This document shows positions 1 through 6,950 of a stretch of 62,913 nt of DNA, piece by piece; the first letter of the stretch is position 1, and each line of letters starts with the position of its first letter. The DNA comes from Marinitoga litoralis (GTDB lineage Bacteria > Thermotogota > Thermotogae > Petrotogales > Petrotogaceae). The stretch covers positions 1 through 62,913 of the forward strand of contig NZ_JAFBDI010000010.1 in the NCBI RefSeq assembly GCF_016908145.1. Reading direction: 5' to 3'. The notes below the pieces were generated by a model, which worked only from the letters and a program-made list of their open reading frames with translations, was not told where the DNA came from and did not search any database. A program made the translations under genes and the position numbers.

Positions 1-411
1 TCCCTTGGAATAGAATGCGCAAAACATAGATATTCAACATATTTCATACATTTCCAAAATTTGATGTCACAATTAAAAAAAGCACTTAAAGAAAACAGAC
101 TGGAAACTCGTCTAAAACATTTTGCGAAGTATAAAGTTTTGATAATTGATGAAATAGGATATCTCCCAATAGATACAGATGCATCAAATATATTTTTTCA
201 ATTAATTTCAAAAAGATATGAAAAGCATAGTACAATCATTACAACTAATACACCTTTTTCAGAATGGGGGAATATATTTGGATCACCTATTTTAGCTCAA
301 GCTATTTTAGACAGACTTTTACATCATTCACATATTATTTCCATCAAAGGTAATTCTTATAGGCTTAGAGAAAAAATTGAGTTTTTTGATAATTCCTCTT
401 CTAATTCTTAG
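1..411 (+). pseudogene. IS21-family IstB-like ATPase, 3' part
   Basis: The frame is open from base 1, so the gene is cut by the window edge; 136 C-terminal residues are visible. They start SLGIECAK, which follows the Walker A region in IstB/DnaC-like AAA+ helper ATPases, then show the Walker B VLIIDEIGYLP and the sensor TTNTPFSEWG. IstB assists the IS21 transposase IstA in choosing target DNA. No inverted repeat was recognised downstream. Whether the element is intact upstream cannot be seen. Its position beside the RiPP cassette suggests that the cassette sits in mobile-element-rich DNA, which is inference. Confidence 0.85.
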
Positions 412-650
412 TTCTTTTTTTGTACATTATTATTTTCCCTTTTTTTAACATTTTCGTAGTTGTTTTTACAACATTAATCATACTTTCTTTTTCTATCTTC
501 CAATATATTATATACTGACTATTTTTCATCCACAAATTTAAAATAAAATTTATACAATATTTAGTCCATTCTTTTTTATTTTTATAACTATTTCCTTTCA
601 ATTTTTTGGTGACTAATGTTTAGATTAAATCAAAAGAAAGGAGGGATAGG

Positions 651-743
651 ATGAATAAAAAAATTAAAATTATTTTCAAAAAAGTTGATAAAAAAGAATA
701 TTCATCAAATGGTGCAATAGTGTCAAAATCTCATGGACACTAA
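651..743 (+). CDS. Putative RiPP precursor peptide, 30 aa
   Basis: A 30-codon ORF preceded by a near-perfect Shine-Dalgarno (AAAGGAGGG at 637-645, 5-nt spacer). The N-terminal half is Lys/Ile-rich (KKIKIIFKKVDKKEY), like a leader, and the C-terminal half is small and polar, ending SNGAIVSKSHGH, like a core. It has no Cys, so thioether chemistry on Cys is excluded; Ser, His, Lys, Asn and Tyr are the candidate modified residues. It lies directly upstream of an exporter, two radical SAM enzymes and a PqqD-like protein, the standard companions of a ribosomally made, post-translationally modified peptide. I do not recognise the family. The role comes from context and a strong RBS; processing is not shown. 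Confidence 0.7.
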   Translation: MNKKIKIIFKKVDKKEYSSNGAIVSKSHGH

Positions 744-750
744 TTTCAAT

Positions 751-779
751 ATCCCGAACCAGTAATACTGGTTCGGGAT
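751..779 (+). terminator. Hairpin between precursor and exporter genes
   Basis: Arms 751-763 and 767-779 (ATCCCGAACCAGT and its complement) form a 13-bp stem with an AAT loop. No long T-tract follows, so it is more likely a leaky attenuator or mRNA-stabilising hairpin that raises precursor over enzyme levels than a full terminator. The function is inferred. Confidence 0.65.
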
Positions 780-797
780 TTATAAAGAGGTGTATAT

Positions 798-1997
798 ATG
801 TTAGAAAAAATAATAAATAAAAGAAACTATTTTATGTATATAAATAAAATTACCATTTCTATAAATATGCTTTTCTTTTTTTATTTTATGATTCATGATA
901 GTTTAGAGATCACGATGCCATTGTTTTTTGAAAAATATAAAATAAACATAGTTTATTTAGGAATGTTAATATCAATTAGTAAAATATTGAGATCTATTAT
1001 TATTATACCCCTTTCAAATATAAGAATGAATAAAAAGATAAAAGTATTATATTTTGTATTATTTACCAATATTTTATTAAATGTTTTCTCGATCATATTA
1101 AGGAATGTGTATCTTATCCTCTTTTATTTTTTATTTTTTCTTATTTCTACAAGTGTTTTTAATGTAATTATAAATCCTATCTTAGCAATAAATACACCAG
1201 AAGATAAATTAGGAATTACTTTTGGTATAAGAGATGTTTTTTTATATATTGGAAGTTTTATAGGATTATTAATTACAGGAAAAATTGTTGATATAAGCAA
1301 TAATTATAATAATCTTTCTTTTATGTATATTATTCTATTTGTTTTCTTAATATTGAATTTAAAAAGTATCCAAAAATTAAATGGAGTTAATTTATCATAT
1401 TCGGAGAATAAAAAAGATAAACACTCAGCAAGTAAATTAGTAAATATATTTAAGATCGAAAAAAGATTTCTTTATTATATCGGTGTTAATACAATAATAA
1501 TTATTGGAACAAGTAGCCTGACATACATGCCATTAATTGGAAAAGAATATGGCATAAGTGATAGTGGAATATATTATATATTCTCATCTTCAATATTCTT
1601 TACTGCTTTTATGTCTTTAATAGGTGGAATAATAATAGATAAATTCAACAAGAAAAAAATATATATAGTAAACACATTTTTATATTTAATAGTATTATAT
1701 TTGTTCGGTATAAATAACAAAGTTCTGTTTGTTATTGGGATATTAATTACTTCAGTTCAAATGGCATTTGCAAATATTAATAGCACATATCTTTTTGAAA
1801 CATTTTCAAATGAAAAAGTAGAAAAATATTGGGGAATAATTAGTGTAGTCTCTTTAATTTCTTCAAGTATGGGGATATTTTTATCTGGATATTTATGGGA
1901 AATAAATCCATCGATTATGTTATTATTTTCTTTTCTAACAACTTTTTTAGGATTTATTTTAACATTTAAATTACCAGTAAAAAATGATAGGATGTGA
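798..1997 (+). CDS. MFS transporter of the RiPP cassette
   Basis: A 399-aa polytopic membrane protein with about 12 hydrophobic segments, typical major facilitator superfamily length and composition, with the inter-domain basic loop around residues 200-220. The RBS is AGAGGTG upstream of ATG 798. It follows the putative precursor peptide and overlaps the next radical SAM gene by 4 nt (GTGA), so it is translated in the same operon. The likely job is export of the mature peptide or self-protection. No motif gives the substrate, and direction of transport is inferred from context. Confidence 0.8.
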   Translation: MLEKIINKRNYFMYINKITISINMLFFFYFMIHDSLEITMPLFFEKYKINIVYLGMLISISKILRSIIIIPLSNIRMNKKIKVLYFVLFTNILLNVFSIILRNVYLILFYFLFFLISTSVFNVIINPILAINTPEDKLGITFGIRDVFLYIGSFIGLLITGKIVDISNNYNNLSFMYIILFVFLILNLKSIQKLNGVNLSYSENKKDKHSASKLVNIFKIEKRFLYYIGVNTIIIIGTSSLTYMPLIGKEYGISDSGIYYIFSSSIFFTAFMSLIGGIIIDKFNKKKIYIVNTFLYLIVLYLFGINNKVLFVIGILITSVQMAFANINSTYLFETFSNEKVEKYWGIISVVSLISSSMGIFLSGYLWEINPSIMLLFSFLTTFLGFILTFKLPVKNDRM

Positions 1998-3166
1998 TTT
2001 TGTTGATAGACTTAGAATCTCATGATTATATGAATATTATAAAAAATTATCATCTAGCAAAAGAAAACTATACAGATAGGAATATTGAAAAAATTTTTAT
2101 TGATACATATTTATTCGAATTAATAGAAAAATATAAAATTTTTCCAAAAAAACCATTATGGATAGGATGGAAAGTAACTCCAAAATGCAACCTTAATTGT
2201 ATCCATTGTTGGGCTATAACTAAGGGAGAAGAGAGGAATACAGAAGATATGCTAAAAGTCATAGATAAATTTCATAAAATGCAAGTTATTCATGTTACAT
2301 TAAGTGGCGGAGAACCATTTTTGAGAAAAGATATTTTTGAAATTTTAAAGTATTTGAAGAAAAAAAGAATTTATATTGAAATTTTTACAAATGGGATATT
2401 ACTGAATGAAGAAAAAATTGAAAAATTAAATAAGATTTTAGATAAAAACACAGATACAATTCAAATAAGTTTAGATGCAGCAACAGAAACAACTTTTTTT
2501 TATCAAAGAAGAACAAAAAAATTTAACATAGTTGTTGATAATATAAACTTATTAAAAAAACACAATTTTATTGTGAGAACTAATTTTACAGCTACACATA
2601 TTAATGTTAATGAAATTTTTGATGCATATGTTTTAGCTAATAAGTTAGGAGTAGATACGTTTAGTGTAAGCCATGTTTATGAATTAAACCGAGGAGTAAA
2701 TTTATATGATAAAGTTAAATTAAATAGATTTATAAACGAAATAAAGAAATGTTTAAGATATAGAGAAGTAGCCAGAACAAAATTACGTTTATTTTTACCT
2801 ATTGAGTTTTATTCAGAAATTGCTCAAAAAATAGAATCTAAAAATAAGAATTCTGTTATCATAGATAAAGAAAGTTTAGGAAAATGGTTTATAAAGGCAA
2901 ATGGTGATATTTATCCAGAAGTAACTTTGGAATTCAATGAATTAAAATTTGGAAATATATATAACGATTCTATAGATGTAATTCTAAAAAAAGCATATGC
3001 AGTAACAAAAAATTTATATTTAAGAAATCTTGAAAAGCAAAAATGTAGTTATTGCAATATGTTATCCTTCTGTCAAGGTGGTGAAATTGGAAGAGTATAT
3101 AAAAAATATAAATCCTCAAATTATCCTGATCCAAAATGTACATTCCAGGAGGTTAAAAATGATTAA
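1994..3166 (+). CDS. Radical SAM enzyme with incomplete SPASM domain
   Basis: 390 aa from a GTG that overlaps the MFS stop codon. The CX3CX2C cluster motif is C65, C69, C72 (KCNLNCIHC), followed by LSGGEPF, the SAM-binding GGEP motif. At the C terminus C351, C354, C360 and C382 resemble the second half of a SPASM domain (CX2CX5C...C). The first half is missing: where SPASM proteins have GX4C this one reads GDIYPEV with no Cys, so the auxiliary cluster I ligands appear absent. It overlaps the next radical SAM gene by 8 nt. Likely modifies the 30-aa precursor or works as a partner of the second enzyme; the chemistry is unknown. Confidence 0.85.
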   Translation: MILLIDLESHDYMNIIKNYHLAKENYTDRNIEKIFIDTYLFELIEKYKIFPKKPLWIGWKVTPKCNLNCIHCWAITKGEERNTEDMLKVIDKFHKMQVIHVTLSGGEPFLRKDIFEILKYLKKKRIYIEIFTNGILLNEEKIEKLNKILDKNTDTIQISLDAATETTFFYQRRTKKFNIVVDNINLLKKHNFIVRTNFTATHINVNEIFDAYVLANKLGVDTFSVSHVYELNRGVNLYDKVKLNRFINEIKKCLRYREVARTKLRLFLPIEFYSEIAQKIESKNKNSVIIDKESLGKWFIKANGDIYPEVTLEFNELKFGNIYNDSIDVILKKAYAVTKNLYLRNLEKQKCSYCNMLSFCQGGEIGRVYKKYKSSNYPDPKCTFQEVKND

Positions 3167-4304
3167 TATGGAATTACTATCAAAATTTTATCAAAGAGAA
3201 TATAAAATAGTAAAAGAAAATAATGAAATAAATTTTGATGCATTTATTAATAATGAAATAAAACGGTATAAATTAAAAAAATTAAGTTTTCCGACTTTAA
3301 TTGGTATAAAAATAACCAATAGATGTAATTTTAATTGTCCGTTTTGTTTTAGTTCTAAAAAAAATCCGAAAGATCTTTCAAAAAAAGAATTATTACACAT
3401 AATCAAACAATTAAAAATATATAAACCTCATTCTATATATATAACTGGAGGAGAGCCGTTTTTAAATTCAAATATTTTCTATTTATTAAATGAATTAAAA
3501 AAATTAAACATAAAATTATCAATACATTCTAACGGTTCATTGATAGATGAATACATAGCAAAAAAATTATCAAAATTACTTGATAAAAAAGATAGCATTC
3601 AAATTAGTTTAGATGGATATGATAATGAAACATTTAAAATTACAAGAAATAGTGATTCATTTAAAAAAGTAATTAATGGAATAAACTTCCTTGTAAAAGA
3701 AAAAATATATGTGAAAATAAATACGGTTGTGACAAATTTAAATGTTAATTATCTTGATAAAATTTATGAATTAAGTTTAGATCTTGGAGTAAATGAAATT
3801 TCCTTTTCCCCATTATTAAATATTAAAAAATCCGAAAAAATATATTTACCTTCGGATGATTTGCTTTTAAAAAATTTTTCAAATGTATTAAAAAAATTTT
3901 ATTCTACAGAAAAGAAATTAATAATATCTCAAGATCCAATAGCGGTTCCATGGGGAAATGAAATAATAAAAAATTTTAATAAGAATAGTAATTTAGTTTG
4001 TCCTGCAGGAAAAACAGCTTTAGAAATAGATAACTATGGAAATGTTTTCCCATGTCCATATTTATATAAAACAGAATTTTATACAGGTAATATTTTTTTT
4101 GAAAACTTATTAGATATTTGGAATTCAAAAAAATGGGAGATATTTAGAAAATTAGAATGGTCAAATAACAATGAATGTAAAAAATGCGAATTTTACAATA
4201 ATTGTAAAGCGGGTTGTATTGCAGCAGCATATATAAATAATAGAAATTATGATCCAAGATGCAATAAAATGAAAGCTAATAATTATTATGTAGAGGATAA
4301 TTAA
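3159..4304 (+). CDS. Radical SAM/SPASM peptide-modifying enzyme
   Basis: The start ATG 3159 is set by the CAGGAGG 6 nt upstream; a longer frame exists but has no RBS. 381 aa. The radical SAM motif is C56, C60, C63 (RCNFNCPFC) with ITGGEPF after it. The C terminus carries a full SPASM set: VCPAG, GNVFPC (GX4C), then ECKKC...C...C spaced CX2CX5CX3C, and a last Cys in PRCNK, enough for two auxiliary 4Fe-4S clusters. Such enzymes crosslink or oxidise side chains of RiPP precursors held by a PqqD-like domain. As the only complete SPASM protein in the cassette it is the best candidate for the main modification. The residues attacked cannot be deduced. Confidence 0.88.
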   Translation: MINMELLSKFYQREYKIVKENNEINFDAFINNEIKRYKLKKLSFPTLIGIKITNRCNFNCPFCFSSKKNPKDLSKKELLHIIKQLKIYKPHSIYITGGEPFLNSNIFYLLNELKKLNIKLSIHSNGSLIDEYIAKKLSKLLDKKDSIQISLDGYDNETFKITRNSDSFKKVINGINFLVKEKIYVKINTVVTNLNVNYLDKIYELSLDLGVNEISFSPLLNIKKSEKIYLPSDDLLLKNFSNVLKKFYSTEKKLIISQDPIAVPWGNEIIKNFNKNSNLVCPAGKTALEIDNYGNVFPCPYLYKTEFYTGNIFFENLLDIWNSKKWEIFRKLEWSNNNECKKCEFYNNCKAGCIAAAYINNRNYDPRCNKMKANNYYVEDN

Positions 4305-4330
4305 AATATTTCTTTGAAGAGGTGAAAAAA

Positions 4331-4606
4331 ATGTATATAATAAACGAAAATATATATTATAGATATGAACCAGAAATCGATGATGGAATTATATATATAT
4401 ATAATTATGAATCTAAAGAAATTATTAAGTCAAATTATATAACATATTTAATATTACATGCTATTGATGAAAATAAAGATGAAGATGAAATTATTAAAAA
4501 GTTAAAAAAAGAATATAATGATTATACGGAGACAGAAATCAAAAGATATTTTGATACAATTATTAAATATCTTTTAGAAAATAATATTATAAGAGTATAT
4601 GTATAA
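4331..4606 (+). CDS. PqqD-like RiPP recognition element protein
   Basis: 91 aa; ATG 4331 follows GAGGTG with a 6-nt gap, so the in-frame GTG at 4322 is part of the RBS. The sequence runs as an N-terminal beta-rich part (residues 1-35) followed by an Asp/Glu/Lys-rich helical part with EDEIIKKLKKEY, the arrangement of PqqD, whose winged-helix fold binds leader peptides and presents them to radical SAM enzymes. It lies 26 nt after the SPASM enzyme and ends the cassette before a terminator. The identification rests on size, pattern and context, since PqqD proteins diverge strongly. Confidence 0.75.
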   Translation: MYIINENIYYRYEPEIDDGIIYIYNYESKEIIKSNYITYLILHAIDENKDEDEIIKKLKKEYNDYTETEIKRYFDTIIKYLLENNIIRVYV

Positions 4607-4698
4607 CTTCGGCTTGACCTCAAGATATTGCAGAAGAAATATGTTTTTTGAATAATTCTTCTTTTTAGAATTTTGTTGATAATAATGTCAAATACTAG

Positions 4699-4730
4699 AA
4701 AAACGGCCGCCCATTAGCAGCCGTTTTTTT
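4699..4730 (+). terminator. Rho-independent terminator of the RiPP cassette
   Basis: Stem AAACGGC (4701-4707) with GCCGTTT (4720-4726), a 12-nt loop and a run of Ts. It closes the 651-4606 operon. Confidence 0.85.
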
Positions 4731-5236
4731 AGATTACTGTTTCCCTGATAATTTATTCTCTATAGAATATTTCCTTTTAAATCAAATATTATAATTAATG
4801 GAGATAAATAATATAGTTACCCTATAATTCCTTATGAGAATTTTTGTGTTTTATAAATAGCCTTATTAATTTAAAAATAAGCACTATTATAAAATATCTT
4901 AAGATAAGAAAATATGTAATGCTGAAAAAATAATGTAATAAGAAAAAATCTATTATTTTATTTTATTGATTGTATTTATTTTTTACTAAAGTATAGAGAA
5001 TATAAGAAAAAATCAACATCAATTATAAAATCTTACAATAATTATTCAATATTAAGCTGAATTAAAAATATTAAAATTTATATAATCTTTCTAATATTTA
5101 AAAAAATATAAATACCTTTAAACAGATAAGATTTTTGAACTTATTTGAAAATCCGATTGATAAAAATTGCTTAAGTAAAAATATATGGATTTTTAATTTT
5201 AAAATAAAAGTTATATAATTGTATAAAAATTCATAA
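4731..5236. other. AT-rich non-coding stretch
   Basis: About 500 bases of very AT-rich DNA with stops in all frames. Short frames here lack RBS and recognisable motifs. It may be the decayed upstream part of the ferredoxin-like remnant that follows. Confidence 0.5.
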
Positions 5237-5455
5237 AAGATTCTAAAGAAGAAAGAAGTAGTATTTGATCCCAAATATCCAAAAATAGACTTAAATAAAT
5301 GCACTTTCTGCACATTATGCGAAATGGTATGTCCATACTGGGCAATTACTGTTGATAAGGAAAATAAACAGGTTATAGTAGATGAAGATAAATGTTTTGG
5401 TTGTAGCTTGTGTCAAAGCAGATGCCCTGTAAAAGCAATTAGTGGAGTAATATAA
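5237..5455 (+). pseudogene. 2[4Fe-4S] ferredoxin-domain remnant without start codon
   Basis: The frame reads ...VVFDPKYPKIDLNKC and then two complete cluster motifs: CTFCTLCEMVCP and CFGCSLCQSRCP, ending GVI and TAA at 5453-5455. It opens after TAA 5234-5236 and holds no ATG, GTG or TTG before the first Cys, nor any RBS. It is probably the C-terminal tail of a larger iron-sulfur protein whose 5' part has decayed. A non-standard ATT start at 5240 would be the only alternative. The Cys ligands are all intact, so the loss may be recent. Confidence 0.7.
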
Positions 5456-5457
5456 TA

Positions 5458-5486
5458 AATCCCGGAATTCCGGGATTATTTTTTTC
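5458..5486 (+). terminator. Terminator after ferredoxin remnant
   Basis: Perfect 20-bp palindrome (AATCCCGGAA and its complement, 5458-5477) followed by ATTTTTTT. It shows that the remnant once had its own transcript end. Confidence 0.85.
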
Positions 5487-5514
5487 TTGTTATTATTTTG
5501 TAAGAAATACTTAA

Positions 5515-5542
5515 TTGAAATAATTACAATTTATGTTATAAT
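5515..5542 (+). promoter_or_regulatory. Promoter of NADH oxidase gene
   Basis: TTGAAA (5515-5520), 16-nt spacer, TATAAT (5537-5542), 64 nt before the ATG. Confidence 0.6.
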
Positions 5543-5606
5543 AAAACCGACAAAATAAATCTTATTTGAATTAATTTAGTTAAAAAAATCACAAGGAGGA
5601 ATTGTT

Positions 5607-6950
5607 ATGAAAATTGCAATTATAGGTTGTACACATGCAGGAACTGCTGCTGCTATTAATTCATCAAAATTATATAAAGATGCTGAAATTACAGTATACG
5701 AAAGAAATGATAATATTTCATTCTTATCATGTGGTATTGCATTACATGTGGAAGGTGTTGTAAAAGATCCCAAAGGATTATTTTATTCTTCACCAGAACA
5801 TTTAAATAGTTTAGGGGTAAATACTAAAATGAGACATGACGTAAAGGATGTTAACTTCAAAAAGAAAACTCTTACTGTTGAAAATTTGGAAACAGGCGAG
5901 ATTTTTGAAGATACATACGATAAGCTGATTATCACAACTGGCTCATGGCCTGTTATTCCAAATATTGAAGGAATAAACATGGATAATATATTATTGTCAA
6001 AGAATTTCTATCACGCTCAAGATATTATTAAAAAAATGGACGAAGTAAAAAATGTTGTTGTTGTAGGAGCTGGTTATATTGGTGTTGAATTAGTAGAAGC
6101 GTTTATTGAACACGGAAAAAAAGTTACATTAATTGATATAGAAGATAGAATATTAAGCAAATATTTAGATAAAGAATTCACTGATATAGCTGAAAATACT
6201 TTAAAGGATCATGGAGCAATTTTAGCTTTAGGTGAAAAGGTTATAAGATTTGAAGGTGAAAATAATAAGGTTAAAAAGGTAATTACAACAAAAGGGGAAC
6301 ATGATGCTGATTTAGTTATTCTTTCAATGGGATTCAAACCAAATACAGAATTATTTAAAGGAAAACTAAAAATGTTAGATAACGGTGCAATTATTGTAGA
6401 TGAATATATGAGAACAAGCGAAAAAGATGTTTTTGCTGCAGGTGATTCATGTGCTGTATATTATAATCCATTAAAAGAATACGAGTATATTCCATTAGCT
6501 ACAAACGCTGTCAGAATGGGAACAATTGCTGCACATAACTTAAAAGAAAAAAGATTAAAACACTTAGGAACACAAGGTACATCTGGAATTAAAATATACG
6601 AAAATAATATTGCTGCTACAGGATTAACTGAAACAATGGCAAAATCTCAAGGTTTAGACGTTGAGTCAATAATAATAACAGAAAATAATAGACCTGAATT
6701 CATGCCAACATATGAAAAATTAATTTTTAAAGTTGTGTATAAAAAGAAAAATGGAAAAATTTTAGGGGCTCAAATATGTTCAAAAGCTGATTTAACACAA
6801 TCAATAAATACTATGTCTGTGGTAATACAAAATAAAATGAAAATGGAAGAATTAGCATTAATTGATTTCTTTTTCCAACCACATTTTAATAAACCATGGA
6901 ATTTCTTAAATACTGCTGGATTAGAATATATTAACAAGAAGATGGCTTGA
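5607..6950 (+). CDS. nox: NADH oxidase, probably water-forming
   Basis: 447 aa, FAD/NAD(P)-dependent disulfide-reductase fold: FAD site IIGCTHAGTAA at the N terminus, NAD site VVVGAGYIGVE near residue 150, second FAD motif DVFAAGDSC. His10 and the single redox Cys42 in SFLSCGIAL fall exactly where NADH peroxidase and H2O-forming NADH oxidase keep their catalytic His and cysteine-sulfenic acid. In an anaerobe this would remove O2 using NADH. CoA-disulfide reductase is the main alternative, but the His10/SFLSC pair favours oxidase or peroxidase. The RBS is AAGGAGG before ATG 5607. Single gene, ending in a terminator shared with the opposite operon. Confidence 0.88.
   Translation: MKIAIIGCTHAGTAAAINSSKLYKDAEITVYERNDNISFLSCGIALHVEGVVKDPKGLFYSSPEHLNSLGVNTKMRHDVKDVNFKKKTLTVENLETGEIFEDTYDKLIITTGSWPVIPNIEGINMDNILLSKNFYHAQDIIKKMDEVKNVVVVGAGYIGVELVEAFIEHGKKVTLIDIEDRILSKYLDKEFTDIAENTLKDHGAILALGEKVIRFEGENNKVKKVITTKGEHDADLVILSMGFKPNTELFKGKLKMLDNGAIIVDEYMRTSEKDVFAAGDSCAVYYNPLKEYEYIPLATNAVRMGTIAAHNLKEKRLKHLGTQGTSGIKIYENNIAATGLTETMAKSQGLDVESIIITENNRPEFMPTYEKLIFKVVYKKKNGKILGAQICSKADLTQSINTMSVVIQNKMKMEELALIDFFFQPHFNKPWNFLNTAGLEYINKKMA

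What the first reader, a model, noticed from the sequence alone, without database searches (positions are those of the whole stretch)
637..4606. Apparently new RiPP cassette: 30-aa Cys-free precursor, two radical SAM enzymes, PqqD-like protein, MFS exporter
Seen: a 30-codon ORF with a very strong Shine-Dalgarno, ending SNGAIVSKSHGH, followed by exporter, radical SAM, SPASM enzyme and PqqD-like gene with overlapping starts. Established: SPASM enzymes plus a PqqD-type domain modify leader-core peptides. Inference: a new class of modified peptide, because the precursor has no Cys, no C-terminal VY (mycofactocin) and no other core I recognise. Ser, His and Lys in SKSHGH are likely targets.
Basis: partly seen in the sequence, partly recalled or inferred. 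Interest (0 to 1): 0.85.

Follow-up and report, generated by a model that had tools for sequence, protein, structure and literature searches.

The report
Bicyclostreptin-type peptide cassette in Marinitoga
A heat-loving vent bacterium carries what looks like the genes for bicyclostreptin, a doubly cyclised peptide known so far (in the literature I could read) from streptococci, so the cassette is real but its type is already known; the new part is where it is found.

Summary
In detail: a 30-codon ORF with a strong Shine-Dalgarno (651-743), an MFS transporter, two radical SAM/SPASM enzymes and a PqqD-like protein form one compact same-strand cassette. The interpretation "new class" is wrong. 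The precursor's last six residues, SKSHGH, are identical to those of the streptococcal HGH RaS-RiPP precursors, whose product is bicyclostreptin (mature SWSKSHGH, -4 H). A Streptococcus equinus plasmid has the same gene order (precursor, rSAM, rSAM/SPASM, ~90-aa RRE), and the two enzymes pair off in order: 37% identity for HghB, 32% for HghC. The PqqD-like protein is modelled as an RRE fold, closest to lasso-peptide B1 proteins. A 94%-identical cassette is in Marinitoga lauensis, with the peptide conserved; no other of 103 Thermotogota genomes has it. By analogy HghC would make a Ser25-O to His28-Cbeta ether, and HghB would then join the His28 amide N to Gly29 Calpha. What differs: the host phylum, an MFS instead of an ABC exporter, no Rgg/SHP pair, and a leader that NCBI's HGH model (NF050042) does not recognise. 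Nothing about the product was tested. Verdict: new member of a known kind, moderately interesting as a thermophile source of these enzymes.

The parts
639..646 (+). Shine-Dalgarno of the precursor (AAGGAGGG)
   Evidence: sequence; conserved in M. lauensis
651..743 (+). HghA-like precursor, 30 aa; core ...SKSHGH (Ser25, Lys26, Ser27, His28, Gly29, His30)
   Evidence: dN/dS 0.11 against M. lauensis
751..779 (+). strong hairpin between precursor and exporter genes, probably an attenuator or mRNA stabiliser; no T-run, not called as a terminator
   Evidence: one G-C to A-T pair change compensated on both sides in M. lauensis
798..1997 (+). MFS transporter, presumed exporter and/or self-protection
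   Evidence: PF07690
2003..3166 (+). HghB-like radical SAM enzyme with reduced SPASM region; predicted to make the His28 N - Gly29 Calpha bond
   Evidence: 37% identity, 201 bits to the first rSAM of the S. equinus HGH cassette; pair supported 99/98 in the tree
3159..4304 (+). HghC-like radical SAM/SPASM enzyme; predicted to make the Ser25 O - His28 Cbeta ether
   Evidence: 32% identity, 168 bits to the second rSAM of the S. equinus cassette; seven SPASM Cys conserved
4331..4606 (+). HghD-like PqqD/RRE leader-binding protein, 91 aa
   Evidence: PF05402; model pLDDT 91.6; top PDB folds are lasso B1 RREs bound to leader

Best explanation
This is a bicyclostreptin-type (HGH RaS-RiPP) biosynthetic cassette in Marinitoga. 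The 30-aa HghA-like precursor is translated; its leader is bound by the HghD-like RRE and presented to HghC, which removes two hydrogens to form a macrocyclic ether between the Ser25 hydroxyl and His28 Cbeta (SKSH, Ser i to His i+3). HghB then removes two more hydrogens to join the His28 backbone amide N to Gly29 Calpha, giving a five-membered ring. A host peptidase trims the leader and the MFS protein exports the peptide, which probably acts as a narrow growth regulator of close relatives. Shown: cassette anatomy, conservation of the peptide, identity of the core hexapeptide, homology and order of the two enzymes, RRE fold of the small protein (modelled). Inferred by analogy: both bonds, their order, trimming, export, activity.
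For: Precursor ends SKSHGH, identical to the S. equinus precursor (...KSWSKSHGH) and to mature bicyclostreptin A, SWSKSHGH with -4.0313 Da (PMC12445099). HGH chemistry, with HghA, HghB, HghC and the RRE HghD, as described in PMC11002830. Same order precursor-rSAM-rSAM/SPASM-RRE in both loci. Same-position enzyme pairs score best: B-B 201 bits, C-C 162-168, against 61-130 across. Both HghB proteins share a reduced SPASM region lacking the usual upstream Cys residues. RRE model matches leader-bound lasso B1 RREs at TM 0.77-0.84. Second cassette in the same order in M. lauensis, with dN/dS 0.11-0.14.
Against: Enzyme identity is only 32-37% and the HghC pair is not resolved as a supported clade in a small tree, so altered regio- or chemoselectivity is possible. 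The RRE pair is barely alike by sequence (E 2e-4). NCBI's HGH peptide model NF050042 does not hit the Marinitoga precursor, although it also scores the S. equinus precursor below its cut-off. No Rgg/SHP. The residue before the core is Val, not Trp. The M. lauensis hghC copy has two 1-base gaps, probably long-read errors.
Confidence: 0.87

Rival explanations
1. HGH-family relative with altered chemistry: same core and homologous enzymes, but in Marinitoga one or both enzymes place a different bond (for example Ser27 rather than Ser25, or only the ether).
For: 32-37% enzyme identity; Val in place of Trp before SKSHGH; HghC pair not resolved as a clade.
Against: All six core residues needed for both known bonds are unchanged, and both enzymes are retained (rSAM1 dN/dS 0.14).
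Confidence: 0.08
2. A genuinely new RiPP class, whose C-terminus resembles HGH by chance.
For: NF050042 does not recognise the precursor.
Against: Identity over six consecutive C-terminal residues plus matching gene order and pairwise enzyme homology to an HGH cassette.
Confidence: 0.02
3. A decayed, non-functional cassette left after transfer.
For: Only 2 of 103 Thermotogota genomes have it; it lies near IS21 and gene debris; two frameshifts in the M. lauensis hghC.
Against: All five window ORFs are intact; dN/dS 0.11-0.14 between the copies. The M. lauensis gaps are single bases in a long-read ('quiver') assembly estimated 87% complete.
Confidence: 0.03

Closest known systems
Bicyclostreptins / HGH subfamily of streptococcal RaS-RiPPs (HghA-D; Bushin et al. 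2022, described in PMC11002830, PMC13361665, PMC12445099)
   Same: C-terminal SKSHGH core; two radical SAM enzymes in the same order; small RRE protein; compact operon starting with the precursor.
   Different: Thermotogota host; MFS instead of the ABC exporter seen in S. equinus; no Rgg/SHP; 30-aa precursor with a dissimilar, Lys-rich leader; Val instead of Trp before the core; not recognised by NF050042.
S. equinus plasmid CP020439.2 cassette (L024)
   Same: Precursor-rSAM-rSAM/SPASM-RRE order; identical SKSHGH terminus.
   Different: MutR/Rgg-type regulator upstream; ABC exporter downstream; 32-37% enzyme identity.
Mycofactocin MftC, streptide StrB/SuiB, WgkB, PqqE (SPASM peptide-modifying enzymes)
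   Same: Radical SAM plus SPASM fold; some act on C-terminal residues with a PqqD-type partner.
   Different: All NCBIfam equivalog scores shown are far below cut-off (best 139.8 against 265 for mycofactocin); cores differ.
His-Xaa-Ser (Hxs) systems
   Same: From memory: two radical SAM enzymes and Ser/His-rich peptides.
   Different: No HxsB/HxsC model among the best 25 NCBIfam matches of either enzyme; no His-Xaa-Ser repeats in the precursor.

Membership tests
HGH RaS-RiPP (bicyclostreptin) | Precursor ending in His-Gly-His | tested here: met
   ...SKSHGH, window 651-743
HGH RaS-RiPP (bicyclostreptin) | Ser three residues before the first His (ether donor), Gly after it | tested here: met
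   Ser25, His28, Gly29
HGH RaS-RiPP (bicyclostreptin) | HghB and HghC homologues, adjacent and in that order | tested here: met
   37% and 32% identity, best same-position scores. Compared with the S. equinus cassette, not with the characterised S. agalactiae or S. thermophilus proteins themselves
HGH RaS-RiPP (bicyclostreptin) | RRE protein HghD | tested here: met
   PF05402 above cut-off; RRE fold match; weak sequence match to the S. equinus protein
NCBIfam NF050042 (curated HGH precursor model, not the literature definition of the family) | Precursor scores above the curated cut-off | tested here: not met
   No hit for Marinitoga; S. equinus 29.6 against cut-off 45, so the model as drawn excludes even a streptococcal SKSHGH precursor
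HGH RaS-RiPP (bicyclostreptin) | Rgg/SHP regulation (typical of streptococcal members, not part of the chemistry) | tested here: not met
   No regulator gene in 412-5500; TIGR01716 absent from the genome
HGH RaS-RiPP (bicyclostreptin) | Product with Ser-O-Cbeta-His ether and His N - Gly Calpha ring (-4 H) | not testable with these tools
   needs MS/NMR
Mycofactocin | MftC equivalog score and C-terminal Val-Tyr | tested here: not met
   139.8 against cut-off 265; ends GH

The most novel reading that the evidence does not exclude
A thermophile branch of the bicyclostreptin family that works outside streptococci without Rgg/SHP control and with an MFS exporter, and whose enzymes have drifted to place a bond differently (for example on the other Ser).
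Probability: 0.1. Interest if true: 0.6.

Novelty: new member of a known kind. Interest (0 to 1): 0.4.

Why it matters
In the held literature bicyclostreptins are described only from streptococci. A cassette in Marinitoga would show that this rare chemistry is not tied to streptococcal quorum sensing, and would supply thermophile HghB/HghC proteins, which may be easier to handle. No close homologue of either enzyme has a solved structure. It also shows that the curated HGH precursor model misses members with a different leader.

Tried and rejected
Genome-contig scan with rSAM2: only M. lauensis and one distant archaeal hit. Viral contigs, four scans: nothing, or distant SPASM proteins only. 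Phages: three distant hits. Plasmids: S. equinus, plus one weak Streptomyces hit to rSAM1. HghB profile over 390 genomes, most of them outside Thermotogota: only the two Marinitoga. I could not centre a genome search on streptococci, and an attempt to find a Lactobacillales handle failed, so the spread of HGH cassettes in Bacillota was not mapped. NF050042 over 390 genomes gave only sub-threshold noise. Rfam: nothing in 1-6000. Base composition as a sign of transfer: cassette 21.8% GC against 24.7% (sd 2.3%) for the rest of the window, not distinctive. The first tree used wrongly extracted outgroup frames and was discarded; one search replaces it. The Cys listing for the four Hgh proteins is valid. 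New RiPP class, mycofactocin and His-Xaa-Ser readings were considered and rejected.

Full report
What is there. The window is contig C10 of a draft genome of the same genus as a genome (G007) whose 325,732-base contig matches Marinitoga lauensis LG1, NZ_QHLX01000004.1. At 651-4606 five genes lie on the + strand: a 30-aa peptide with a strong Shine-Dalgarno, an MFS transporter, two radical SAM/SPASM enzymes and a 91-aa PqqD-like protein. No RNA family matches nearby. A strong hairpin (z -5.5) lies between the peptide and transporter genes; in M. lauensis one of its G-C pairs has become A-T on both sides. It has no T-run and was not called as a terminator, so attenuation or stabilisation of the precursor message is inference.

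Is the peptide real. The M. lauensis cassette is 94% identical over 4.2 kb. The peptide differs at one residue (Asn to Ser in the leader), with two synonymous changes; dN/dS is 0.11 for the peptide, 0.14 for the MFS and 0.14 for rSAM1. The peptide figure rests on three changes only and is supportive, not conclusive, on its own. M. lauensis hghC has two single-base gaps; that assembly is a long-read unitig and the genome is estimated 87% complete, so read errors are likely but not shown.

What it is. A tblastn of rSAM2 against plasmids found one cassette, in Streptococcus equinus. There, a MutR/Rgg-type regulator is followed by a 41-aa ORF ending KSWSKSHGH, two radical SAM genes, an 87-aa protein and ABC exporter genes. 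The window peptide ends in the same six residues, SKSHGH. rSAM1 is closest to the first streptococcal enzyme (37%, 201 bits) and rSAM2 to the second (32%, 168 bits); cross pairs score 61-130 bits. The pairing of the first enzymes is supported at 99/98; that of the second enzymes is not resolved among long branches. The two first enzymes also share a reduced SPASM region without the usual upstream Cys residues.

Known chemistry. The HGH subfamily makes bicyclostreptins: HghC joins the Ser(i) hydroxyl to Cbeta of His(i+3), and HghB, which needs the HghC product, joins the His amide N to Calpha of the next Gly; HghD is an RRE (PMC11002830). Mature bicyclostreptin A is SWSKSHGH at -4.0313 Da (PMC12445099). 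Bicyclostreptins are reported as growth-inhibitory to S. thermophilus (PMC13361665). In the window the matching residues are Ser25, His28 and Gly29. The 91-aa protein, modelled at pLDDT 91.6, matches leader-bound lasso B1 RREs best (TM 0.77-0.84), which supports an RRE role.

What differs. The exporter is an MFS protein. No Rgg/SHP pair is near, and the Rgg family model finds nothing in this genome. NCBI's HGH peptide model does not recognise the precursor. Within 103 Thermotogota only the two Marinitoga have the cassette, and a broader sample of 390 genomes adds none. The cassette lies near a truncated IS21 istB (1-411) and a 216-bp remnant of a dihydroorotate-dehydrogenase-like gene (5244-5459), 97% identical over 208 bp to the intact gene end on another contig. 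In M. lauensis it lies about 1.2 kb from the 3' end of that gene, while the same neighbourhood holds other genes in other Marinitoga. Acquisition by transfer into a variable spot is therefore likely but not proven; the donor is unknown.

Limits. Orthology was tested against S. equinus, not against the biochemically characterised proteins. The spread of HGH cassettes in Bacillota was not mapped. The 2022 RaS-RiPP atlas and the primary bicyclostreptin paper were not read here, so a prior listing of Marinitoga cannot be excluded; full-text searches combining Marinitoga with RiPP terms found nothing.

Noticed in passing
L014 (G000 contig C48) 4974-5171 and flanks: A 65-aa Cys-rich peptide (MEHIKIVNLKSNNQIENCILDYCSGYDGG...) between broken radical SAM/SPASM frames and ABC transporter genes: apparently a second, decayed rSAM peptide locus in the same genome.
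   Followed up: partly
L021 889-3364 (G006): Another Marinitoga has a different cassette: 37-aa peptide ending TVCMSKTGCVVIPT, PqqD-like protein and two radical SAM enzymes.
   Followed up: no
L020 1371-3719 (G018): A relative in the same family has a PqqD-like protein, two radical SAM enzymes and a peptide ending KASSECGCGQGY.
   Followed up: no
window 5244-5459: Remnant of the 3' end of a dihydroorotate-dehydrogenase-like gene, 97% identical to the intact copy on contig C63; a 58-bp tail duplication lies near the matching place in G005 (L049).
   Followed up: partly
window 1-411: 3' part of an IS21 istB gene at the contig start; a similar fragment is at the end of contig C48.
   Followed up: no
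NCBIfam NF050042, against L024:4650-4775 and window 651-743: The curated HGH precursor model (cut-off 45 bits) scores the S. equinus SKSHGH precursor at only 29.6 bits and misses Marinitoga, so it undercounts the family.
   Followed up: yes
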